This document shows, piece by piece, positions 1 through 10,059 of a stretch of 64,000 nt of DNA. Below the pieces are notes generated by a model that was not told the DNA's origin, made no database searches, and saw only the letters and a program-made list of their open reading frames with translations. Positions within the stretch are counted from its first letter, which is position 1. Each line of letters begins with the position of its first letter. Source of the DNA: an uncultured cyanobacterium. GTDB taxonomy: Bacteria; Cyanobacteriota; Cyanobacteriia; Cyanobacteriales; Nostocaceae. The stretch lies in NCBI GenBank assembly GCA_903848645.1, contig CAINGU010000073.1, positions 1-64,000 on the forward strand, given 5' to 3'. Both the position numbers and the translations under genes were made by a program.

Positions 1-170
1 ATGTCGATACCATTTCTATTCAAGGTGGTAGCGGTTCTGGGATACATGATTTAGTTGAATACAGCATTAAAGGTAAGGAATTTGTCTTGTTAGGTTTTGC
101 TATTGATAACGTTGTATCTCTAGCTAAATCATTTAGCCATGATGACAGTCATGGTTACTCTCATCATTAA
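1..170 (+). CDS. RiPP precursor-like peptide, C-terminal part (5' end outside window)
   Basis: The open frame enters from the left edge and stops at 168-170. The visible end reads VDTISIQGG, then a hydrophobic core and a His-rich tail ending SHGYSHH. The core (DLVEYSIKGKEF, then VLLGFAID) aligns with the core of the complete peptide at 381-596 (ELVKFGIQSMEF, then ILLAYAID), so the two are tandem paralogues. The I-x-I-x-G-G ending of the leader looks like a double-glycine site for a C39 peptidase, and such a peptidase is encoded at 6616-9336. No cysteine is visible. Its role as substrate of the downstream kinase and HopA1 enzymes is inferred from position and from the leader pattern. Its start codon lies outside the window. 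Confidence 0.6.
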   Translation, partial: VDTISIQGGSGSGIHDLVEYSIKGKEFVLLGFAIDNVVSLAKSFSHDDSHGYSHH

Positions 171-183
171 AATGTATGGGATA

Positions 184-208
184 AATAAGCCAAATTAAAT
201 TGCTTATT
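184..208. terminator. Hairpin between the two tandem peptide genes
   Basis: A perfect 7-bp inverted repeat (AATAAGC at 184-190, GCTTATT at 202-208) lies 14 bases after the stop of the first peptide gene. There is no clear U-run, so it may be an RNA-processing or attenuating stem that lets the peptide genes be made in excess over the enzymes, rather than a full terminator. This is inference from position. Confidence 0.35.
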
Positions 209-380
209 CATTCCATGAAAATCCGGTTCAGTCAAGAATTTATCACCCTAATTTCTCTATTATTTAGGCAAATTAGGATTGTGAATAACTTACTGAACTG
301 GATTAAATAATCAATTGATATCTAGTGTTTGCTTACACTTTACGGCTATCATGATTTTGCAATTAGTGGGTATTAAGCAA

Positions 381-596
381 ATGGCAAGAATTAAAATTTC
401 TGATCTAAACACAACCCAAGAAAAATTATTAATCTATGAAATTAGTAATATGGAATCTGTTTCTATATTTGGGGGAGATAGTGACAGTTTTCGTGAATTA
501 GTTAAATTCGGAATTCAGTCTATGGAGTTCATTCTATTAGCTTATGCCATAGATTCTATTTCCTATTTAGGAAGTTCATTTAATAGCAAGGATTAA
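381..596 (+). CDS. RiPP precursor-like peptide with double-glycine leader (family A, 71 aa)
   Basis: The ATG at 381 is chosen over the upstream TTG at 315 because it gives the same N-terminus (M-x-x-I-x-I-x-D-L) as the two peptides at 4259-4519 and 4593-4862. The leader runs from residue 1 to G31-G32 and has the acidic/hydrophobic pattern (E20, I21, E25, I29, F30) usual before a double-glycine cleavage site. The predicted core is residues 33-71. It holds several serines, a central hydrophobic stretch (FILLAYAID) and no cysteine. It is a paralogue of the partial peptide at 1-170. It lies directly upstream of the APH-type kinase and HopA1-type gene on the same strand, which suggests it is their substrate. 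Cleavage by the C39 exporter is inferred. Confidence 0.68.
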   Translation: MARIKISDLNTTQEKLLIYEISNMESVSIFGGDSDSFRELVKFGIQSMEFILLAYAIDSISYLGSSFNSKD

Positions 597-672
597 ATAT
601 AATTTGCTGTGCAATCAGCCGATATTGTGTTAATTAGCCAACGCATTGTTAACTAATTTTTCCTATAAAGCT

Positions 673-1836
673 ATGCCATTTCTCATAAGTTCTACTAACG
701 TTTTTGACTACTTGGTTAATCACGAAATTTGTCACCCACAAGACGAATCATTAAGCAAAATTGAGTTAAAACCAGCCAAAAACTTTAATTTATTAATCAG
801 TTTACCAGAGGAACGTCAAATCCTAGTTAAACAAGAGCGTCATGATCGAGATGGTAAAACTTTAGGTGAGTTTAGAGCAGAATGGAGAATTCATGATTTT
901 TGTCAGAAATTTCCAGAAATAAATCATTTACGTTCATCTTTATCGGAAGCAATCTATTTTGATTTAGAAAACTCCATTATGGTGTTTAACTATCTAAATC
1001 AATATCAAGATTTGGCAGAATTTTATGCCAAAGATCAGGTATTTCCTCCAGAAATTGCTGAGTTACTTGGGACAACACTGGCAAAAGTTCATCGCTCAAC
1101 CATAGAAGATAAAAATTATCAAAAGTTCTTTGAAAATTCTCTAGAAGCTCCAAATTTGAGCAAGGGATTAGATAGAATTACACCACAAATATTTGGTAAT
1201 CTTCCTGCTGATGGTTTAAAATTTTTTGCTCTCTACCAACGTTATGATAATTTAGGAAAAGCAATTGCCGAATTAAATCAGGCTTTTATGCCTTGTTGTT
1301 TGACTCATAATGATCTCAAACTGAATAATATTCTTTTATCTTTAAACTGGGAAACAGAAATAGAAGATAAATTACCTGGAAATAGCAATATTCTCAGACT
1401 GATTGATTGGGAAAGAGGTAGTTGGGGAGATCCTGCTAATGACTTAGGCACAATAATTGCTAGTTATCTGCAAATTTGGTTATATAGCATAGTCGCTAGT
1501 AAAACTATACCTCTTGAAGAATGTTTGCGTTTAGCTGCTATTCCTTTACCAAGGATTCAACCTTCTTTATCAACATTAGTGAGTGGTTATTTAAGTAATT
1601 TTCCCGAAATTTTAGAACTTCGGCCAAACTTCTTGGAATTAGTGATGCAGTATTGCGGTTTAGCCTTAATTAGAGCTATTCAGGCTAAACTGCAATATGA
1701 AAAAACTTTTGGTAATTCGGGTATCTGCATTCTCCAAGTTGCTAAGAGTTTATTATGTCGTCCCCAAGCATCTATTCCCACAATTTTAGGGATGGAATTT
1801 TCAACAATAATTTCTAAAAATTTATCTCTTGCTTAG
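673..1836 (+). CDS. APH-fold kinase, class V lanthipeptide / thioamitide-type (LxmK/TvaC-like)
   Basis: This is an aminoglycoside-phosphotransferase-fold protein of about 387 residues. The catalytic-loop motif H-x-D-x4-N is present as H212-N-D214 to N219, and the DFG-equivalent metal-binding motif is D245-W-E. The kinase therefore looks active. In class V lanthipeptide and thioamitide pathways an APH-like kinase phosphorylates Ser/Thr of the precursor and a HopA1-like partner eliminates the phosphate. Here the HopA1 gene starts only 15 bases after this stop codon, and a candidate precursor lies just upstream. ATG 673 (MPFLISS) is preferred over TTG 646, but neither has a strong ribosome-binding site. 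A generic small-molecule kinase is the alternative. The neighbourhood makes peptide phosphorylation much more likely. Confidence 0.8.
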   Translation: MPFLISSTNVFDYLVNHEICHPQDESLSKIELKPAKNFNLLISLPEERQILVKQERHDRDGKTLGEFRAEWRIHDFCQKFPEINHLRSSLSEAIYFDLENSIMVFNYLNQYQDLAEFYAKDQVFPPEIAELLGTTLAKVHRSTIEDKNYQKFFENSLEAPNLSKGLDRITPQIFGNLPADGLKFFALYQRYDNLGKAIAELNQAFMPCCLTHNDLKLNNILLSLNWETEIEDKLPGNSNILRLIDWERGSWGDPANDLGTIIASYLQIWLYSIVASKTIPLEECLRLAAIPLPRIQPSLSTLVSGYLSNFPEILELRPNFLELVMQYCGLALIRAIQAKLQYEKTFGNSGICILQVAKSLLCRPQASIPTILGMEFSTIISKNLSLA

Positions 1837-1851
1837 AGAAGGAAAACCTGT

Positions 1852-2934
1852 ATGCAAGTATTAGATTCTCTAGACAGTCAACTTTTTCAACTACCACAGG
1901 AATTACAAACATCCCTGGAAAATATTGTTAATCATCTGGAAATTGAATCATTTTATGCTATTAAGCATCCAGAATACAACTTATTAGCATTGCCAGAATC
2001 AGTTATCTCTCGCTTTCAAAATTTACCCTTAGATATTCAACATAAACATTTGAGTATCCAATTACGTAATTTTCTCTACAGTGCTTATTATAACGGTTCT
2101 TGGCATAACTCTACCACTGCTAATACCCAGGACAATGACTTAAGTAATAATAGCTTATTTGGCATAGATTTAGCTTTTTATGAACGACTACATACAAGTA
2201 ATACAGGTACAGGCTATTGGAGTAAAAATTGGCTAGTAGTTAATGAAGAAGCTGATGGATCTTTGGCAGTTCACAAAAATGGTTTAACCTTGCATATTGA
2301 GCGTGATTTATATTTATCAAGTGTTGATAAATCGGCTAGTGTTGGTAATTTAGTAGCAATCAAAATGCCTAAAAATTTAGTTCAAAATGGATTTTATATG
2401 GCAGCATCTAATCTAGGAACTCAAGATCATCAAGATATTGTCAGAATTTACTTTAATGTATCACCAGAAGGTGCGGTATCGGTGATGAATAGTTTAACAA
2501 AACAACTTAATAATATTCCAGTTGCTTTCTCATTTAAAGCTTTATATACTCCTGATGAATATGAACGTTATGATTCAGCAGTGCTTTATTTCAACAAACA
2601 TCACTATAAAACTATTTATCCTATATTGCAAAAGGTATATTTAGAAAATCAAGACAGTTTTTCTCAACAAGTACCGTTGTTTACTAAGCCACTAGCACCG
2701 GGGTTAGGTTGTGCTGAAGAACCAGAAAATAAATTTGGTGAAAAAGAAAGTTTTGGTACTAATCGTTGTCAAATTATTGCTAATGGTTTAATTGCAGCTT
2801 GGCAAGCAGGTAAGAATCATCCCAGAAGTCGAATGACAGCTATTTTTGAACAATTTGCATTACATAAAATTAAACTAGAATATCCTTATCTTAATAGCAA
2901 TTCAGAGGATATCTATACTCCATTAGATGGATGA
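1852..2934 (+). CDS. HopA1-family lyase-like protein (LxmY/TvaD-like)
   Basis: The 360-residue protein matches the T3SS-effector HopA1 family. Family-typical stretches are GTGYWSKNWLVV near residue 123, a KNGLTLH block near 143, VRIYFNVSPEGA from residue 197, and FTKPLAPGLG near 277-286, followed by an SFG-x-x-RC block. HopA1-like proteins of class V lanthipeptide and thioamitide clusters remove phosphate from phospho-Ser/Thr to make dehydroamino acids. An AAGGA ribosome-binding site precedes the ATG, and the gene is coupled to the kinase by a 15-base gap. The N-terminal 60-70 residues are more variable. No third, cyclase-type gene is visible next to it. The lyase role is inferred from family and pairing. 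Free-living cyanobacteria have no type III secretion, so an effector role is unlikely. Confidence 0.8.
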   Translation: MQVLDSLDSQLFQLPQELQTSLENIVNHLEIESFYAIKHPEYNLLALPESVISRFQNLPLDIQHKHLSIQLRNFLYSAYYNGSWHNSTTANTQDNDLSNNSLFGIDLAFYERLHTSNTGTGYWSKNWLVVNEEADGSLAVHKNGLTLHIERDLYLSSVDKSASVGNLVAIKMPKNLVQNGFYMAASNLGTQDHQDIVRIYFNVSPEGAVSVMNSLTKQLNNIPVAFSFKALYTPDEYERYDSAVLYFNKHHYKTIYPILQKVYLENQDSFSQQVPLFTKPLAPGLGCAEEPENKFGEKESFGTNRCQIIANGLIAAWQAGKNHPRSRMTAIFEQFALHKIKLEYPYLNSNSEDIYTPLDG

Positions 2935-3058
2935 TAGGACGTTCTTAATTATATCAAAACCGAGAATTTATGAGTATCTTTAATATTCTCGGTTGTATCA
3001 TTAAGTAAGTGGGCGTTAAAAAATATAATATAAACCTAACTCCCCAACCCCCTTCCCT

Positions 3059-3193
3059 ACCTCTCCCTAACCCTCTCCTAAGAGGAGAGGGAAGCGGAAA
3101 GACTTTTGTTAGCTGGAAGGGGGAGTCAAAGCCTCTCCAGTATTAAGAGTTATTCCTTTTCCCTCTCCTTGTAGGAGAGGGTTAGGGAGAGGT
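3059..3193. repeat. Intergenic inverted repeat, 22-bp arms, between convergent RiPP operons
   Basis: The 307-base gap between the HopA1 stop and the parvulin stop holds no gene. Its centre is an inverted repeat whose 22-base arms (3059-3080 and 3172-3193) are exact reverse complements, rich in CTCTCCCTAACCC. Each arm also contains or adjoins a smaller local hairpin. This matches the cyanobacterial habit of CT/AG-rich palindromic intergenic elements. It may act as a bidirectional terminator for the two converging operons. Confidence 0.7.
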
Positions 3194-3241
3194 TTACCAG
3201 AGAGGTTTTATATTTAATTGTGCCAAGCTACTTATCTAATT

Positions 3242-4030
3242 TCAACTAGCTTCACTGAACATTTCTACTGGAGAAGAGGAAAGCTTGGTATCATCTCCTA
3301 ATGTAGCGGTAATTTCTAATTTATTAATTTGCTCTTTTAACCAATTGGTAAATAAATCGCTGAGAATTCCTACACGCATTTGTTCATTTAATTGGGGTTC
3401 GATTATTTCTTCAACTATAATGATATGCGCTCCCTTTGGTGTAATTACTGGTTTGAGAATTTGTGGGGGATTAGCTGCAAACACTGCGGAGGCAATTTCC
3501 GGTTTAAAATCACTACGTTTACGAATACCTTGATATCCTCCAGTCCGTCGTATTTCGGGATTTTCGATATATTGACGAGCGATTTCTTGAAAACTAATTT
3601 CCCCTTCTTGGAGAGCATAAAATATTTCTAGAGCTAAATCTTCATCGTCTAAAATCACTTCATAGGTAACTGCTGCGCTGTAATCAAGTTGATGAGCATA
3701 AAAGAATGGTTCAACTTTATCAGCAAATAAATGATGAGCTAATTTTGCAGATGTGAGATTAAAATTTGCTATTTCTTCAAAGTTATCTAGAGAAAGATAA
3801 TGTTTTTGTAACCATTCCCAGGTTTCTTCTGCTTTAATCAGTTTGTTAGCTAATCTTAAACTATCTGCGGACTGTTGTAGTTCGGCTATTTCGATGGTAA
3901 TACCTGCTTTTTCAGCAGTTTCAGTAATGATTTTTCTCGTAGCAATTGCCTCTAATAAACTAGGTATTTGGCAAGATATTTTGATGTGATAAATAATATC
4001 TTCTTTGGATATTTTTACAATATTTGACAT
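3242..4030 (-). CDS. Parvulin-type peptidylprolyl isomerase (PpiC/SurA-like)
   Basis: This protein of about 262 residues has an N-terminal all-helical SurA-like part and a C-terminal parvulin (rotamase) domain at roughly residues 120-225. The parvulin signatures visible are the ISFQEIARQY block, RRTGGYQG, and PVITPKGAHIIIVEE near the end. No signal peptide or membrane segment is apparent, unlike the classical periplasmic SurA/PrsA. ATG 4030 is chosen because GAGG lies about 10 bases upstream; the longer frame would use TTG at 4045. It is the last gene of the exporter operon, after two precursor-like peptides. Parvulins often accompany HlyD/ABC exporters in cyanobacteria, so a chaperone role for the exported peptides is a reasonable inference. 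Confidence 0.82.
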   Translation of the reverse strand: MSNIVKISKEDIIYHIKISCQIPSLLEAIATRKIITETAEKAGITIEIAELQQSADSLRLANKLIKAEETWEWLQKHYLSLDNFEEIANFNLTSAKLAHHLFADKVEPFFYAHQLDYSAAVTYEVILDDEDLALEIFYALQEGEISFQEIARQYIENPEIRRTGGYQGIRKRSDFKPEIASAVFAANPPQILKPVITPKGAHIIIVEEIIEPQLNEQMRVGILSDLFTNWLKEQINKLEITATLGDDTKLSSSPVEMFSEAS

Positions 4031-4196
4031 GATGTAATTCCTCAATCTACTAAATTTATTAAGAATTTATTGTTTGAGCTTGTTTAAATAAATTATTCCT
4101 GTATTTATCATATTTACGTGATCTGTTATTTTCTTACCTCTATCTAATGGTACTTTTAATATGTTTGATAATTAATATTAAGAAAATTACTAGATT

Positions 4197-4231
4197 TATA
4201 TCCCCAACTTTTCTCAAAATTCGGGGATATA
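4197..4231. repeat. Palindromic repeat of the ATCCCC...GGGGAT family
   Basis: A 9-bp inverted repeat (TATATCCCC at 4197-4205, GGGGATATA at 4223-4231) lies just past the stop of the minus-strand peptide gene and is followed on the plus strand by ATTTTTTAA. Similar palindromes occur at 6566-6600 and 59995-60023, so it is a member of a dispersed family. It could end or stabilise peptide-gene transcripts. Confidence 0.55.
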
Positions 4232-4258
4232 ATTTTTTAAGAGTTATTTGGTAAATAT

Positions 4259-4519
4259 TCAAACTATTAAATAGACAGCACTTCTTGCAAAATCAAGAGT
4301 AAAAAACTTATTATCATGAAAACCAAATGGACCTTCATATGCTGATTGAAGGTTATTTATTCCATCATAAACAGTCGTTAATGCAACACTAGAAATACCC
4401 CCACCCCATAAAGGCAGAATACCAGTACCTAATATTTGTTGTGTTTGCTCTGAATTTAAGTCATACAAAAATGTCTTCTGCTCAATAAATTGTAAGTCAG
4501 AAATTATGATTGCAGCCAT
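4259..4519 (-). CDS. RiPP precursor-like peptide (family B, 86 aa)
   Basis: The leader starts MAAIIISDL and keeps the pattern I4-x-I6-x-D8-L9, D20-L21, E24, I29-L30 seen in the other two complete peptides. At residues 31-32 it has Gly-Thr instead of Gly-Gly, and a second glycine run follows at G39-G41. The core carries TVYDGINNLQSAYEG and HDNKFFTLDFAR, closely matching the neighbouring peptide at 4593-4862. There is no cysteine. The gene sits between the second family-B gene and the parvulin gene, downstream of the HlyD gene on the same strand, so it is probably transcribed with its exporter. Cleavage after residue 32 or after the later glycines cannot be decided by eye. Confidence 0.66.
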   Translation of the reverse strand: MAAIIISDLQFIEQKTFLYDLNSEQTQQILGTGILPLWGGGISSVALTTVYDGINNLQSAYEGPFGFHDNKFFTLDFARSAVYLIV

Positions 4520-4592
4520 GACATTATTTCCTAATCAAAAAGTGAACGGTTTTGCAATTGTGACAAAATTGCCTGTAAATCTGCTGAAATAA

Positions 4593-4862
4593 TTAACGAT
4601 ATACCCAAGCATTAGTTGTCCGAGAATAATCTACCGTATTGACTTTATTATCATGGACATTACCTGCTCCTTCATAAGTTGTTGATATGGTATTTATACC
4701 ATCATAAACGGTACTTATTAAAATATTAGGATTCAGTCCCAAATTGGGAAAACCTCCCCAAAAGTTACCCCCTAATATAATACTTAATTCTGATGTTTCT
4801 AAATCCTTAATAAAGGTTTCTAAGCCAGTAGGATACAAGTCATAAATTACTATTCTTTCCAT
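4593..4862 (-). CDS. RiPP precursor-like peptide with double-glycine leader (family B, 89 aa)
   Basis: The N-terminus MERIVIYDL and the following D20-L21, E25 and I28-I29-L30-G31-G32 match the leader of the peptide at 381-596 position for position. A second GG follows at 36-37. The core has STVYDGINTISTTYEG and HDNKVNTVDYSR, which repeat in the neighbouring peptide at 4259-4519, and it is rich in Thr, Ser and Asn with no cysteine. It is the first peptide gene after the HlyD gene in the exporter operon. A double-glycine leader next to a C39-peptidase exporter strongly suggests it is cargo. Whether it is also modified by the kinase/HopA1 pair on the opposite strand is open. Confidence 0.7.
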   Translation of the reverse strand: MERIVIYDLYPTGLETFIKDLETSELSIILGGNFWGGFPNLGLNPNILISTVYDGINTISTTYEGAGNVHDNKVNTVDYSRTTNAWVYR

Positions 4863-4999
4863 TGAATTATCTCTGAATTTTTATTAGGTTAACTATTATA
4901 TTTTGACATTACTTGTGAGTAAATAATGAAAAAGTTGCATATTAACGTCTTTTTTTTTAGACATAAGTTAATGATTTTTGTCTTGAAGGCTAATGTAAA

Positions 5000-6532
5000 T
5001 TAAAGCTCCAGTCCATTTTTCTGTAATTTCTTAAATGGATCTAAAATGAAGTCAATAACTCGCCGTTGACGAATAATTACTTCAGCACTGGCTGTTTGTC
5101 CAGGGGTGAGAGCAATCTGTTTGTTACCAACTTGAATATAAGGATTTTCCAAGGCAATATCTAATTCATAACTCTCTATCCGATTGGAACTATTTTCCTG
5201 AATCTTAGAGTTAGGTGCAATCCAATTAATTCGCCCTGATACAATTCCATATTCTTGGAAAGGATAAGCATCAAACTTAATTTTTACTGGCATTCCTACC
5301 TTGACAAATCCACTATGTTGACTAGGCATACGTGCCTTCAAAATTAAGGCAGCATTTTGGGGTGCAACTTGAGCAATCATTTGTCCTGGTTGCACTACAG
5401 AACCAGGTTTTTTAATCGGTAGCTCAAAAATTGTTCCATCAATAGGAGAGCGAACAATTCGCTGTTTTAACTGTAATTGGAGGGATAAAATCTGTCCTTT
5501 TGTTTGCACAATTTCTGATTGAAGGGAAATAACTTGGTTTTGTAAGTCTTTAAACTGTTCCTGACTTTTTAATAATGCTAATTCTCCTCCTTGCATGGCA
5601 CTTTTATAACTACTTTCTTGTTCTTTTAATCGCAATTTTGCCTGCTCAATATCTGATTTGAATTGATTCATAAGCGACTGATAACTACTTTCTTGTTCTT
5701 TTAATCGTAACTGTGCTGTTTGAATATTAAATTTTGCTTCTTGTTGTAAACGTTGACTTTCTTCTGCAGTTTTTTCTAATTCTACTACTTTAGTTTGAGG
5801 AATGATTCCTTCCTTTAAAAGTAGACGATAACGTTCAACTTCGGACACATCTCGACGCAACCGACTTGTCGCTAATCGGTAGTTACTTTGAGTAGATTGT
5901 ATATTTTGTTTTATCTGATCAATTTGTGCTAATTTCTCCAAGTTTTGGAAGTTATAAGCACTTTTTTTAGTCTCAAATGTTTGTCTGGCTTGATTAACTT
6001 GAGCAGTTTTTTCTAAGGATTGAGATTGGTTTTGCTGACGTTGGATATTAATGGACATTAAGACTTGATTTTTTAAGATTTCTAGTTGCGCTTGGCGACT
6101 TATTAGCCCTTCTAATTTAGCTTTTGTTTGTTGCATTTCTGTTTGGAGAACCTCAGATTCCATTTCTACTAAAACTTCTCCAGCTTTAACAGTTGCACCT
6201 TCTTTGACTTTAACAGCAACAACATTACCAGTCACGGCACTATCTAATTTTTGTGTTGCACCTTTGGGTTCTATCCTTCCTGTAGCACTTCCTGTTTCAT
6301 CAACTTTAGTTAACATTGCCCAAGGTAAAATAATTGCGGCAAAACTAACTAACAAATACAACATTGAACGAGTCCATGCTTTTGGTAAAGCATCTAATAA
6401 TTCTTCTGTCCCATAAAACCAATCCTTGGCTTTATCTAATTTCTGGGTTTGATTTTGGATCAAATCAGTAGACTCAGCTTGGTTCTGAGGCTTTCTGGTA
6501 GTTGTTGGTTGTGTATAAACTGACTGTGGCAT
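5000..6532 (-). CDS. HlyD-family membrane fusion protein of the peptide exporter
   Basis: This 510-residue adaptor has a cytoplasmic N-terminal tail of about 55 residues and one transmembrane segment (MLYLLVSFAAIILPWAM). A lipoyl-half motif (RIEPKGATQKLDS, then VKVKEGATVKAGEVLVEM) follows, then a long Gln/Glu/Lys-rich coiled coil of about 200 residues, and the second lipoyl half with the barrel domain (IVRSPIDGTIFELPIKKPGSV). It would link the inner-membrane ABC exporter at 6616-9336 to an outer-membrane channel, which is not encoded here. An 83-base spacer containing a palindrome separates it from the exporter gene. The C-terminus (VIIRQRRVIDFILDPFKKL) is typical of type I secretion adaptors. 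Confidence 0.9.
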   Translation of the reverse strand: MPQSVYTQPTTTRKPQNQAESTDLIQNQTQKLDKAKDWFYGTEELLDALPKAWTRSMLYLLVSFAAIILPWAMLTKVDETGSATGRIEPKGATQKLDSAVTGNVVAVKVKEGATVKAGEVLVEMESEVLQTEMQQTKAKLEGLISRQAQLEILKNQVLMSINIQRQQNQSQSLEKTAQVNQARQTFETKKSAYNFQNLEKLAQIDQIKQNIQSTQSNYRLATSRLRRDVSEVERYRLLLKEGIIPQTKVVELEKTAEESQRLQQEAKFNIQTAQLRLKEQESSYQSLMNQFKSDIEQAKLRLKEQESSYKSAMQGGELALLKSQEQFKDLQNQVISLQSEIVQTKGQILSLQLQLKQRIVRSPIDGTIFELPIKKPGSVVQPGQMIAQVAPQNAALILKARMPSQHSGFVKVGMPVKIKFDAYPFQEYGIVSGRINWIAPNSKIQENSSNRIESYELDIALENPYIQVGNKQIALTPGQTASAEVIIRQRRVIDFILDPFKKLQKNGLEL

Positions 6533-6565
6533 AAGTAATTTTAGAGTTCTATATTTTTGTAGTTA

Positions 6566-6600
6566 TAGATCCCCAACTTCTGGAAAAAGTCGGGGATCTA
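6566..6600. repeat. Palindromic repeat between exporter and HlyD genes
   Basis: Arms TAGATCCCC (6566-6574) and GGGGATCTA (6592-6600) form a 9-bp stem that can extend inward through AACTT/AAGT. It is the second copy of the ATCCCC...GGGGAT palindrome family in this operon (others at 4197-4231 and 59995-60023). It may reduce read-through from the ABC gene into the HlyD gene. Confidence 0.6.
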
Positions 6601-6615
6601 GTTGCAATTCAACAA

Positions 6616-9336
6616 TTAATTTATTTGTGCTAATTGTTGTTGGTTGAGATAGAAATAATGTCCTTTTTTGGTAATTAATTCTTCGTGTGTACCACTTTCT
6701 ACTAACACACCACGATCTAAAACTAAAATTAGATCAGCATGACGAACTGTAGAAAGACGGTGAGCAATAATTACACTGGTACGTCCTTGGAGAATTTTTC
6801 TAAGGTTATTCTGAATAATCCGTTCAGATTCAGAATCAAGATGACTCGTAGCTTCATCTAATATTAAAAGTCGGGGATTTCCTAGTAAAGCCCGGGCAAT
6901 TGCTAACCGTTGCCGTTGTCCTCCTGATAACATTCCTCCACCTTCACCAATTTGTGTTTCATAACCCATGGGCATCCTTTTTATAAACTCATCTGCACCT
7001 GCAAGTTGGGCTGCTTCTATAATCTCGTCTAATGAGGCATCAGGATGGGCAATTGTGATATTTTCCCGAATTGTTCCCCCAAATAAAAATGTATCTTGAT
7101 CAACAACTCCTATTTGCGATCGCAAAGAATGTAAGGAAATACTAGTCACATCTTGATTGTCAATTAGAATCCTTCCATCTGTCGGTAGATATAAACCTAA
7201 AATTAATTTAGAAAGGGTTGTTTTACCTGAACCACTGCGCCCTACAACTGCTACTGTTTGTTCCGGTAAAATTTCAAAGCTCAAGTTTTCTAGAATGTTA
7301 ATTTCACTTTCGGGATGATAGCGAAAAGTCACATTATTAAAGCGAATTCTCCCGACTAATCTCGGTAAATATTGCCGGGGCTGATGTTCTAAATCTTCCT
7401 CTGGTTGTGCTTCTAAGACATCATTAATCCGTTCTGTAGCAACAATTACTTCTTGTAATTGATTCCACAAAATAATTAATCTTTGGAAAGGCTGGATAAT
7501 ATTCCCCAGTAACATATTAAAAGCTACTAATTGACCAATTGTCAGTTGATTTTGAATCACCAACCAAGCCCCAAACCATAGTAATCCCGTACTTGCTAAG
7601 GATTGAATTGTCGAGCTAACTAATTGCAGTTGATTACTAACTACTTGACCACTAAAGTTCTTTTTGATTAAATTATTCAGTAATTCTTCCCAACGCCAAC
7701 GAACTGTTTGTTCAATGGCCATTGAGCGAATGGAAGAAATCCCCGTCAAGCTTTGAATTAAATAACTATTTTCTAGCGTTCCGGCTGCAAATACCTCCCG
7801 ACTAATTCGCCGTAAAAAGGGCGTAGCAAATAATGTTAATAACACAAATGGCGGCACAATTGCTAATGTCATTAATGCCATTGGTGGACTGTACCAAAAC
7901 ATTAATCCCACATAAATAAAGACTGTCAATAAATCTAACCCAATAGACAGAGCTTCACCAGTGAGAAAACGCTGAATTTTTTGATTTTCTTGAATACGGG
8001 AGACAATATCCCCAACATAACGGGATTCAAAAAATGAAAGAGGTAAGGCAAATGTATGTTTAATAAATCCCACCATTAAGGCTACACTAATTCGGTTAGC
8101 GGTGTGATCTAGTAAATATTGTCTTAACCCATTAATAGCAACACGAAACAACCCAAAAATTAACAATCCAAAGCCCACAGTATTTAAGGTTAAAACACTA
8201 CCTTGCACAATTACTCTATCTAATAAAAGTTGAGTAAATAAAGGTGTGACTAATCCAAATACCTGAATTAATACCGAAGCAATAAACACTTCTAGCAGGA
8301 CTTGAAAATGAGGTTTAACTAAATCCAATAACTGCCAAAATGGTGTGTTAGCTTCTTGTGTTTTTTTGAGTGAAGCTGTGGGTTGTAATAATAAAGCGTA
8401 ACCAGTCCAACCTGCAAGAAATTCCTTAATAGTCAGGTAACGCTGGCCAACCGCAGGATCAGCAATAATTACCTGTTTTTTGGTAATTTCATAGACAACA
8501 ATGTAATGTTTACCTTCCCAATGCGCGATCGCTGGTAAAGGTTGTTGAGCAAATTTATCCAAACTTGCTTTCACTGGACGGGTAGCAAAACCAAGGCTTT
8601 CCGCTGCTGCACTTAAACTCCGCATGGACGCACCACTACGGTTAACATTAGCCAAATCCCGCAGCCGATTAATACTGAAGTTTTTCCCCCAATAACGACC
8701 AATCATTACTAAGCAAGCCGCACCACAATCAGCCGCACTTTGTTGTTCAAAAAATGGATAACGTTTGGTAAATTTACGCCACCAATTTCCAGCAGTTACA
8801 GTGGGAATAGGAAAGTATTTAAGGCGTTTTTTGGGTGGTGTCGGTGTGAGAATTATCGGTTGGGTAAAATTGGTAGTTTTTGCTTTCCTAGGTGCTTCAA
8901 TGATCGGCATCTCTGGAGATTTGGGAGTATGAATTATTTCGGCTTGATTCAACAACCGATCATAAATACTAGGAAATTCTCCCATTACCTTCTTCACTAT
9001 TTGTTGAGGAAGATAGGCAATTTTTAAATTTACAGAAGCTCTAGCCACATAACTGCTAAACTCTTGTTCTGGAAATAAAGTTAACTCCCCAAATGACGAT
9101 CCTGCTCCCAGAGTATTAATTAAATTATTGGAGCTATCAAGTAATCTCACTTTACCAGTTAGCACAATATAAATTCCCGGTTTTGCTGTTGTCGTTTGCC
9201 AAAATTGCTTTGCTACTGGTGGTTCAATAATTTCTAAAGCCTTGATACAATCTGTAACTGCTTGATCTGATAGGGAATCACCCAAGGCTTGCTTAATGTG
9301 TGTAACTAACTGTTCCTGAGAAAACGCTGATAGCAT
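6616..9336 (-). CDS. Peptidase C39 ABC exporter with N-terminal cyclic-nucleotide-binding domain
   Basis: The 906-residue protein has a cNMP-binding-like domain (about 30-135) and a linker. A C39 peptidase domain follows (about 190-310) with Q198, C204 (in DCGAACL), H277 and D293 as the expected catalytic residues. Then comes a six-helix exporter domain (about 340-630) and a nucleotide-binding domain with Walker A (GRSGSGKTT), signature LSGGQ and Walker B (LLILDEATSHLD). It would cleave leaders after a double glycine and pump the cores out. A GGAGG site sits just before the ATG, 22 bases past the stop of the regulator gene. The architecture resembles HetC of heterocystous cyanobacteria and bacteriocin exporters. 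Substrates are probably the peptides at 381-596, 4259-4519 and 4593-4862. Confidence 0.92.
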   Translation of the reverse strand: MLSAFSQEQLVTHIKQALGDSLSDQAVTDCIKALEIIEPPVAKQFWQTTTAKPGIYIVLTGKVRLLDSSNNLINTLGAGSSFGELTLFPEQEFSSYVARASVNLKIAYLPQQIVKKVMGEFPSIYDRLLNQAEIIHTPKSPEMPIIEAPRKAKTTNFTQPIILTPTPPKKRLKYFPIPTVTAGNWWRKFTKRYPFFEQQSAADCGAACLVMIGRYWGKNFSINRLRDLANVNRSGASMRSLSAAAESLGFATRPVKASLDKFAQQPLPAIAHWEGKHYIVVYEITKKQVIIADPAVGQRYLTIKEFLAGWTGYALLLQPTASLKKTQEANTPFWQLLDLVKPHFQVLLEVFIASVLIQVFGLVTPLFTQLLLDRVIVQGSVLTLNTVGFGLLIFGLFRVAINGLRQYLLDHTANRISVALMVGFIKHTFALPLSFFESRYVGDIVSRIQENQKIQRFLTGEALSIGLDLLTVFIYVGLMFWYSPPMALMTLAIVPPFVLLTLFATPFLRRISREVFAAGTLENSYLIQSLTGISSIRSMAIEQTVRWRWEELLNNLIKKNFSGQVVSNQLQLVSSTIQSLASTGLLWFGAWLVIQNQLTIGQLVAFNMLLGNIIQPFQRLIILWNQLQEVIVATERINDVLEAQPEEDLEHQPRQYLPRLVGRIRFNNVTFRYHPESEINILENLSFEILPEQTVAVVGRSGSGKTTLSKLILGLYLPTDGRILIDNQDVTSISLHSLRSQIGVVDQDTFLFGGTIRENITIAHPDASLDEIIEAAQLAGADEFIKRMPMGYETQIGEGGGMLSGGQRQRLAIARALLGNPRLLILDEATSHLDSESERIIQNNLRKILQGRTSVIIAHRLSTVRHADLILVLDRGVLVESGTHEELITKKGHYFYLNQQQLAQIN

Positions 9337-9357
9337 TTCCTAACCTCCAAAACACTA

Positions 9358-9954
9358 TTATTTATTGGTCTGCATGAGATTAAATGACCAATGAAAACTA
9401 GGTTCAGGTGGAGAATGCAAATCACAAATTGTAATTGCTAAATCCTGATTTTCAGTAGTTATCAATGGGGAACTTTTCCGTTTCGTGGAAAGTCCCATTT
9501 GTTTAAGAAGACGATTAATGTGGCGATCGCTAATTTGAATTCCCAACTCTTTTGCTAAATGTTTACTCAACCATTGAGCCGTCCAATCACCAAAAGCATA
9601 GCCATATTCACGGGGACTACAATTAACTAATTCTTTCAACCTTTCAATATATTGATGATTAACAATTTTTGGTCTACCTAATGGGCGCTGATTCCATTTG
9701 TGCGCCATACCTGCCTCAGCAACACCTATCCAATACCTAGCCATTTCCTGAGAACAACCAATTATTTCACAAATATGAGTTTGCGATTTCCCCATATCTG
9801 CTAACAACATAATCTCAATCCGTCGCCGATATTCTGGTTGTGAATTGTTTTGTAAGTTTTTTAGCAACGCCTTCCGCTGAAAAGGTGTTAAAAACTTACT
9901 TTCATAACTATCGTAAATATTAACAACCTGATCTTGATGAGAATAAGATGACAT
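9358..9954 (-). CDS. Helix-turn-helix protein, transposase-derived regulator of the exporter operon
   Basis: This is a protein of about 198 residues. It has a resolvase/IS630-like helix-turn-helix (IEIMLLADMGKSQTHICEIIG, split over two helices, then CSQEMARYWIG) and a second winged-helix region (WTAQWLSKHLAKELG, then SDRHINRLLKQMGL). This is the DNA-binding half of IS630-type transposases, but no DDE catalytic domain follows and no terminal inverted repeats were seen. ATG 9954 is preferred to TTG 9993. It heads the minus-strand operon, 21 bases before the exporter gene, so it probably regulates it. A decayed transposase is the alternative, but the tight operon spacing argues for a domesticated regulator. 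Confidence 0.65.
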   Translation of the reverse strand: MSSYSHQDQVVNIYDSYESKFLTPFQRKALLKNLQNNSQPEYRRRIEIMLLADMGKSQTHICEIIGCSQEMARYWIGVAEAGMAHKWNQRPLGRPKIVNHQYIERLKELVNCSPREYGYAFGDWTAQWLSKHLAKELGIQISDRHINRLLKQMGLSTKRKSSPLITTENQDLAITICDLHSPPEPSFHWSFNLMQTNK

Positions 9955-10059
9955 AATTCTTACCAGTTGCCTTCTACTTTCAAATTTGGGCAAATCTATC
10001 TGTTACATCTATTGCTCAATTACAGATGCAAAAAATTTCACAGACATTCAGTATTTAAT

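What the first reader, a model, noticed from the sequence alone, without database searches (positions are those of the whole stretch)
1..9954. Cyanobacterial RiPP system combining an APH kinase / HopA1 lyase pair with double-glycine peptides and a C39 exporter
Seen: kinase with intact H-D-N and D-W-E motifs, HopA1-family protein, at least four short peptides with a shared leader, C39 ABC exporter with intact catalytic residues, HlyD adaptor, parvulin and regulator, in two convergent operons. Known: APH-like kinase plus HopA1-like protein dehydrate Ser/Thr in class V lanthipeptides (LxmK/LxmY) and thioamitides (TvaC/TvaD), described mainly from actinobacteria. Inference: this is a cyanobacterial version tied to secretion through a double-glycine exporter.
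Basis: partly seen in the sequence, partly recalled or inferred. Interest (0 to 1): 0.92.

Follow-up and report, generated by a model that had tools for sequence, protein, structure and literature searches.

The report
Cysteine-free cyanobacterial dehydropeptide gene cluster
A freshwater cyanobacterium carries genes that probably remove water from serines and threonines in several small peptides and then export them; this gene pairing in cyanobacteria was already published, but these peptides contain no cysteine, so they cannot form the rings that give the usual "lanthipeptide" label.

Summary
In detail: window 1-9993 carries kinase, HopA1 protein, GG-leader peptides, PpiC, HlyD, C39 exporter and an HTH regulator in two convergent operons. 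Kinase and HopA1 models match the solved lexapeptide dehydratase LxmKY best, with catalytic residues present, so "works like a class V dehydratase" is well supported.

The novelty claim is not: Eyles et al. 2021 (PMC8153245, section 16) described such clusters with GG-leader peptides in 183 cyanobacterial BGCs ("Family 1A"). Strict lanthipeptide membership also fails: no Cys in 95 cores of 19 related loci and no LanC match in the genome. Likely products are exported, thioether-free dehydropeptides.

Ten loci encode fused kinase-HopA1 proteins. A second, peptide-less pair occurs in 22 of the 24 own-family genomes with a HopA1 match; its lyase lysine is replaced (Q19/E2/H1 of 22) with kinase motifs mostly intact, suggesting phosphorylation without elimination.

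The parts
1..170 (+). C-terminal part of a b-type precursor (core ...IKGKEFVLLGFAIDNVVSLAKSFSHDDSHGYSHH), cut by the contig start; its leader is probably the one at the end of contig C47 (L132:1-135 -)
   Evidence: open 5' end; C47:16-135 - match; both contig ends read VDTISIQGGSGSGIHD; adjacency of the contigs is inferred
381..596 (+). c-type precursor, 71 aa from the ATG, GG leader MARIKISDL...IFGG, no Cys
646..1836 (+). APH-fold peptide kinase, LxmK/CaoK-like (first ATG at 673)
1852..2934 (+). HopA1-family phospho-Ser/Thr lyase, LxmY/CaoY-like; R198, K229, R239, Y246 match the lyase residues
3020..3200 (.). palindromic repeat between the convergent operons, a dispersed genomic element rather than a cluster part
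3242..4045 (-). parvulin-type PpiC, distantly like TIGR04500 peptide-maturation proteins (62.8 bits, cut-off 180)
   Evidence: PpiC in 44 of 63 peptide loci
4259..4519 (-). d-type precursor 1, 86 aa, no Cys; leader ends in GTG rather than GG
4593..4862 (-). d-type precursor 2, 89 aa, no Cys
5000..6532 (-). HlyD-family adaptor
6616..9336 (-). C39 peptidase-ABC exporter with N-terminal cNMP-binding domain ('long type' of Wang 2011)
9358..9993 (-). IS630-like helix-turn-helix protein without the rest of the transposase, probable regulator (first ATG at 9954)

Best explanation
A RiPP cluster. The APH-fold kinase (646-1836) recognises the precursors' leader and phosphorylates Ser/Thr in the core. 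The HopA1 partner (1852-2934), in a heterodimer, beta-eliminates the phosphate to give dehydroalanine/dehydrobutyrine. Because the cores have no Cys and no LanC cyclase was found, the products stay free of thioether rings. The C39 exporter cuts after the GG motif and sends out several Cys-free dehydrated peptides, with HlyD as adaptor and perhaps PpiC as chaperone. Shown by sequence or model: gene content, family, catalytic residues, fold match to LxmKY, conserved linkage, absence of Cys, no LanC match. Inferred: leader recognition, catalytic activity, which Ser/Thr react, cleavage site, and the final role (most likely a multi-peptide bacteriocin).
For: HopA1 model (pLDDT 89.6): best PDB match LxmY 9dk1_B, E 5e-18, then HopA1 effectors, class III LanKC enzymes and, lower, SpvC. 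A 45-sequence profile hits only LxmY in the PDB at E 0.01 or better, E 6e-13. Kinase model (pLDDT 84.6): best match LxmK 9dk3_A, E 6e-15, ahead of methylthioribose and choline kinases. R198/K229/R239/Y246 align with LxmY; K-x9-R-x6-Y has the spacing of CaoY K219/R229/Y236, and CaoY K219A leaves only phosphorylated peptide (PMC9486802). K229 is kept in 55 of 63 peptide-linked loci. Ten loci encode a single kinase-HopA1 polypeptide (Pfam domains checked in 3 of 10). Window-clade cores: 0 Cys in 95 cores of 19 loci; after thinning to 40 cores below 60% identity, 0 Cys in 1,908 residues against about 19 expected. No LanC match in the genome. Ser is 11.3% of core residues against 6.5% in ORFs over 250 aa of the same loci (212 cores).
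Against: Nothing was measured. The kinase is far below the LxmK equivalog cut-off (77 of 315 bits), and a kinase profile search of the PDB listed PsiK and an APH but not LxmK. Lyase residues vary: in the 63 peptide-linked loci R198 is Arg in 48, K229 Lys in 55, Y246 Tyr in 49; R198 is Arg in 1 of 11 fused loci, and the exact K-x9-R-x6-Y string is in 52 of 98. b/c-type cores have a conserved helix-like part with few fully conserved Ser/Thr, unlike a core dehydrated at fixed sites. C39 is missing from 22 of 63 peptide loci, some cut by contig ends. GG leaders also occur away from HopA1 in the same genome (C60), so a leader alone does not show modification.
Confidence: 0.62

Rival explanations
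1. Dehydration happens, but the dehydro residues are then captured by Lys, His, Tyr or the N-terminus (lysinoalanine/histidinoalanine-type rings), or reduced to D-amino acids, so the product is cross-linked or saturated rather than open dehydropeptide.
For: d-type cores keep an NK pair in 9 of 9 peptides, as HDNK in 5 of 9 (4 loci). 16 of 63 peptide loci carry a relative of an aldo/keto-reductase-family protein (Pfam checked on 1).
Against: No LanC match in the genome, and none of the ten window proteins scanned is a reductase or cyclase. b-type tails vary freely.
Confidence: 0.2
2. The peptides are exported unmodified as GG-leader bacteriocins, and the kinase/HopA1 pair acts on something else.
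For: The same leader occurs at C60 with no kinase, HopA1 or exporter match in the 11.4 kb examined. A peptide-less pair exists in the same genome.
Against: Peptide-kinase-HopA1 gene order recurs over many loci. The lyase lysine is kept in 55 of 63 peptide-linked copies but in 0 of 22 of the peptide-less clade.
Confidence: 0.13
3. A class V lanthipeptide in the strict sense, with (methyl)lanthionine rings.
For: Same dehydratase type. Genome-mining rules may call such loci lanthidin/class V (recalled; two papers use 'lanthidin' for cyanobacterial clusters). Other cyanobacterial precursors do have Cys: 33 of 92 cores in 45 more distant loci, and Liang's type-B set was selected for Cys.
Against: No Cys in the window's peptides, in the C47 precursors or in 95 cores of 19 related loci; no LanC match in the genome. 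Only 2 of 98 loci gave a LanC match, and the one of these with a detected peptide has Cys in its core.
Confidence: 0.03

Closest known systems
HopA1/phosphotransferase 'Family 1A' clusters of Cyanobacteria (Eyles et al. 2021, PMC8153245, section 16 and passages read)
   Same: HopA1 plus phosphotransferase, several non-identical precursors with conserved double-glycine leader, variable cores without conserved Ser/Thr/Cys, cyanobacteria only
   Different: Their peptide list (ESI) was not available, so membership of these exact peptides is inferred. Complete Cys absence in one clade, the exporter/regulator module and the lyase-lysine loss in a second clade are not in the text I read
Class V lanthipeptide dehydratases LxmKY / CaoKY (9dk1; PMC9486802 and PMC12141560, passages and sections read)
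   Same: Fold, partner pair, lyase residues R/K/R/Y, kinase motifs
   Different: Precursors lack Cys; no LanC match, no LanD/LanX among the scanned window proteins; GG leader with C39 exporter; 18-19% identity to LxmK and LxmY in the structure alignments
Thioamitide and kintamdin dehydratases (TsaCD, TvaCD, KinCD; PMC8153245, PMC9415263, passages read)
   Same: Kinase plus HopA1-like protein dehydrate Ser/Thr
   Different: No YcaO/TfuA or Cys decarboxylase among the ten window proteins scanned; no Cys in cores
Cyanobacterial bacteriocin cluster groups I/II (Wang et al. 2011, PMC3140520, passages read)
   Same: Long C39 transporter with CAP_ED domain, HlyD, SurA/rotamase; several GG-leader precursors as in group II
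   Different: The kinase/HopA1 pair was not described in the passages read ('phosphotransferase' occurs 0 times in the main text)

Membership tests
Class V lanthipeptide | LanK (APH-fold) kinase and LanY (HopA1) lyase pair | tested here: met
Class V lanthipeptide | LxmK equivalog score cut-off | tested here: not met
   77.2 of 315 bits
Class V lanthipeptide | Cys in precursor for (Me)Lan rings | tested here: not met
   no Cys in the window's peptides or the C47 precursors and 0 in 95 cores of 19 related loci
Class V lanthipeptide | Cyclization machinery: LanC (class Vb) | tested here: not met
   no PF05147 match at E 0.001 in the whole own genome
Class V lanthipeptide | Cyclization machinery: LanD plus LanX (class Va) | tested here: inconclusive
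   none among the ten window proteins scanned; not sought genome-wide, and the cluster runs off the contig
Class V lanthipeptide | Dehydration of Ser/Thr | not testable with these tools
   needs mass spectrometry
Eyles Family 1A (cyanobacterial HopA1 RiPP-like clusters) | HopA1 plus phosphotransferase in a cyanobacterium | tested here: met
Eyles Family 1A (cyanobacterial HopA1 RiPP-like clusters) | Conserved GG leader, multiple non-identical precursors, variable cores | tested here: met
Eyles Family 1A (cyanobacterial HopA1 RiPP-like clusters) | Peptide falls in the published Family 1A network | not tested
   ESI datasets not held; supplementary look-ups capped at 0
Thioamitide | YcaO/TfuA thioamidation genes in the cluster | tested here: not met
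   none among the ten window proteins scanned
Wang 2011 group I/II bacteriocin cluster | CAP_ED-C39-ABC transporter, HlyD, SurA-like rotamase, GG precursors | tested here: met
   definition passages; their tree placement not repeated

The most novel reading that the evidence does not exclude
Cyanobacteria hold a RiPP class whose end product is a Cys-free, ring-free, exported dehydropeptide (dehydration by a kinase/HopA1 pair as the terminal chemistry, not a step to lanthionine). In addition, a Nostocaceae-wide paralogous pair has lost the lyase lysine and acts as a Ser/Thr phosphotransferase on an unknown target, a natural counterpart of the CaoY K219A mutant.
Probability: 0.4. Interest if true: 0.68.

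Novelty: new member of a known kind. Interest (0 to 1): 0.42.

Why it matters
Cyanobacterial clusters of this kind (183 in Eyles 2021) can be labelled class V lanthipeptide or lanthidin by their kinase/HopA1 genes (labelling rule recalled), although this branch has no Cys to make a thioether. If the reading is right, these are enzymes for placing dehydroamino acids in ring-free peptides, with precursor, kinase and lyase side by side and so convenient for E. coli co-expression. The lyase-lysine-less second pair gives a direct test of whether LanK/LanY complexes also serve as plain Ser/Thr kinases.

Tried and rejected
Rejected: that the 211-aa ORF at 9358-9993 is a broken IS630 transposase. Its family hits suggested this and my first notebook entry says so; one search showed it is a conserved cluster gene. 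Rejected: strict lanthipeptide membership (no Cys, no LanC match). Rejected: that the kinase is a small-molecule kinase, although by sequence profile alone the PDB search lists PsiK and an APH at weak E-values and does not list LxmK.

Led nowhere: search for an undescribed small precursor beside the peptide-less pair. The largest recurring short-ORF group spans 9 of 22 loci and is a small membrane protein (judged by eye); no short ORF there scored better than E 1 to the leader model. A paper search for '9DK1' matched mostly unrelated strings, with one useful review. The 181-bp intergenic palindrome is a dispersed repeat and was not followed further.

Rows dropped or chosen: one search gave 105 HopA1 matches (my count of its table); 98 were examined (window plus 97 fetched), and 7 partial ones were left out (G297 twice, G282, G270, G230, G365:C849, G198). 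Of 219 leader hits, 212 with score 20 or more were counted. The 19-locus 'window clade' is my cut from a 25-locus clade of the kinase tree (support 0.754); the 6 sister loci left out have Cys in 2 of 25 cores. Core starts were set by a script at the first GG-like motif near the leader's end, and peptide types by a pattern that put 3 b-type peptides in the a group (seen by eye). A1 and A2 hold 45 sequences each (window plus 44), not all 63. An earlier count said '97 of the 102'; the correct figure is 97 of the 104 other matches.
Full report
What is there. The window is the left end of a 90-kb contig (C73) of a 5.4-Mb cyanobacterial genome in 119 contigs. The 12 named relatives of its kinase are Anabaena, Dolichospermum, Aphanizomenon, Cuspidothrix and Nostoc, the nearest being Anabaena sp. 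UHCC 0187 at 87% identity. Plus strand: a cut precursor (3-170), a complete precursor (381-596), an APH-fold kinase (646-1836), a HopA1-family protein (1852-2934). Minus strand, convergent: an HTH protein (9358-9993), a C39 peptidase-ABC exporter with N-terminal cNMP domain (6616-9336), HlyD (5000-6532), two precursors (4593-4862, 4259-4519), a parvulin (3242-4045). Contig C47 ends inside a b-type precursor that shares the residues VDTISIQGGSGSGIHD with the window's cut precursor. C47 also has an a-type precursor (L132:457-681 -) and then a gene that looks like the peroxiredoxin-type gene (named by eye) found upstream of the cluster in relatives such as L042. If the two contig ends meet in one gene, the cluster has five detected precursors; if they are two tandem copies, six.

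Enzymes. The HopA1 protein scores 206 bits to PF17914. Its AlphaFold2 model (mean pLDDT 89.6) matches LxmY of the lexapeptide dehydratase LxmKY best (E 5e-18), then P. syringae HopA1 effectors (E 4e-7), then, above E 0.001, class III lanthipeptide synthetases and SpvC. A 45-sequence profile finds only LxmY in the PDB (E 6e-13). R198, K229, R239 and Y246 align with R, K, R, Y of LxmY, and the K-x9-R-x6-Y spacing equals CaoY K219/R229/Y236. In CaoY, K219A leaves only phosphorylated peptide and R187A nearly abolishes elimination (PMC9486802, section 6). These residues are not universal: among 63 peptide-linked loci K229 is Lys in 55, R198 Arg in 48, R239 Arg in 59 and Y246 Tyr in 49; in the 11 fused loci K229 is Lys in 9 and R198 Arg in 1. 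The exact K-x9-R-x6-Y string is in 52 of 98 proteins. The kinase has K62, E79, HxD...N and DWE. LxmK (NF038156) is its best NCBIfam match, far under the equivalog cut-off, and 45 of 45 scanned members of alignment A2, window included, match it. Its model (pLDDT 84.6) is closest to LxmK (E 6e-15), ahead of methylthioribose and choline kinases. By sequence profile alone, LxmK was not among the PDB hits at E 0.001; PsiK and an APH were.

Survey. HopA1 occurs in 68 of 388 cyanobacterial genomes searched (105 matches, of which 98 were examined, the window included). A kinase relative is present in 97 of 98 loci. By gene content: 63 loci with GG-leader peptides and unfused HopA1; 24 loci without detected peptides; 11 loci with a fused HopA1 protein. 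Of the fused proteins, 10 are kinase-HopA1 single polypeptides (Pfam domains confirmed in the 3 scanned) and 1 is HopA1-LanC. In the 63: C39 exporter (over 300 bits) 41, HlyD 39, PpiC 44, the HTH protein 33, an aldo/keto-reductase-family relative 16 (Pfam on one). Some loci are cut by contig ends, so these are lower bounds. The HTH protein lies on the same strand as and upstream of C39 in all 33, within about 330 bases except in L034 (1,622 bases).

Precursors. A leader model seeded with the window's peptides finds 219 peptides in 70 of 98 loci; 212 were kept, of which 35 have Cys in the core. In the window's clade (19 loci, 95 cores) three recurring upstream types appear, assigned by pattern and eye. 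The a-type often starts Arg-rich. The b-type is often multi-copy, with leader TGSELFQDS, a conserved stretch K..EF...YgI..I..LAKSfS and a variable aromatic/His/Ser tail. The c-type is next to the kinase. A d-type (9 peptides in 4 loci) sits in the exporter operon. None of the 95 cores has a Cys (0 of 4,320 residues, a few of them unresolved). After thinning to 40 cores below 60% identity, 0 of 1,908 residues against about 19 expected from the 0.99% Cys of ORFs over 250 aa in the same loci (P about 6e-9, assuming independence). Outside this clade, Cys is found in 2 of 25 cores (6 sister loci) and 33 of 92 cores (45 other loci). A LanC match was found in 2 of 98 loci (L113, L099; one single-sequence query). 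L099's peptide has Cys, and none was detected at L113. The own genome has no LanC match. So thioether rings are not available here, and strict lanthipeptide membership fails on a defining feature while the dehydration chemistry remains likely.

A second pair. The own genome has another kinase/HopA1 pair on C37 (L052). Its clade has 22 loci from 22 genomes, all of the window's family, which is 22 of the 24 own-family genomes with a HopA1 match; the other two are G143 and G354 (local support 0.98 in the HopA1 tree, 1.0 in the kinase tree). Of the genomes without a match, one search lists 20 (none of the own family) and leaves 300 unlisted. No GG leader, PpiC or C39 exporter over 300 bits was found in these 22 loci; L060 has a short weaker ABC match. 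In L052 the pair lies beside genes that look like menaquinone/phylloquinone biosynthesis (judged by eye) and BrxC/D, TerB-C and DUF815 genes. The lyase lysine is Gln in 19, Glu in 2 and His in 1 of 22, while kinase K62, E79 and HxD...N are kept in 22 of 22 and DWE in 20 of 22. By analogy with CaoY K219A, this pair should phosphorylate without eliminating; that is inference.

Prior art. Eyles et al. 2021 found 1,340 HopA1 proteins, 96% beside a phosphotransferase, and Family 1A: 570 peptides in 183 cyanobacterial clusters with a double-glycine leader and variable cores without conserved Ser, Thr or Cys (PMC8153245, section 16 read). Kloosterman 2020 noted distant cyanobacterial homologues (PMC7794033, passages). 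Liang 2022 reports a cyanobacterial type-B precursor set, selected for Cys and Ser/Thr in the C-terminal region (PMC9486802, passages). Wang 2011 described the exporter side as cyanobacterial bacteriocin groups (PMC3140520, passages). I saw no characterised cyanobacterial product of a HopA1 cluster in the listings, which cover open-licence PMC papers only. The kinase-HopA1 fusion and the lysine loss are not mentioned in the passages I read; the supplements were not readable.

Verdict. What is added here: complete Cys absence in this clade and hence not a lanthipeptide, precursors over two contigs, the conserved IS630-like regulator, natural kinase-HopA1 fusions, and the lyase-lysine-less family-wide paralogue.

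Noticed in passing
G000:C37, locus L052:9504-11886 (minus strand), and 21 other loci such as L039, L047, L051: Second kinase/HopA1 pair without detected precursor peptides, in 22 of 24 own-family genomes with a HopA1 match; the lyase lysine is replaced (Q19/E2/H1 of 22) while kinase HxD..N is kept in 22 and DWE in 20. Possible phosphorylation-only pair.
   Followed up: partly
L102, L104, L108, L109, L111, L116, L118, L119, L120, L122: Natural single-chain kinase-HopA1 fusions (747-826 aa); the 7 of 10 with a detected peptide have Arg-rich cores with Ser/Asn/Thr.
   Followed up: partly
L061:8949-9974 and 15 other loci: Aldo/keto-reductase-family relative in 16 of 63 peptide loci; might reduce dehydro residues. 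Not seen in the window cluster.
   Followed up: partly
window 3020-3200: Palindromic element between the convergent operons with 69 match rows in the own genome, probably a dispersed miniature repeat.
   Followed up: partly
G000:C60, locus L146:8756-8950 and 9080-9310 (minus strand): Two GG-leader peptides with Gly/His/Tyr/Ser-rich cores (one with Cys), with no kinase, HopA1 or exporter match in the 11.4 kb examined.
   Followed up: partly
L099:6360-9614 and L113:8413-10902: The only two of 98 loci with a LanC match; L113 is a HopA1-LanC fusion and L099's peptide is Cys-containing, so Cys may track the cyclase.
   Followed up: partly
L097: Locus with 16 detected GG-leader peptides with very diverse cores upstream of one kinase/HopA1 pair.
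   Followed up: no
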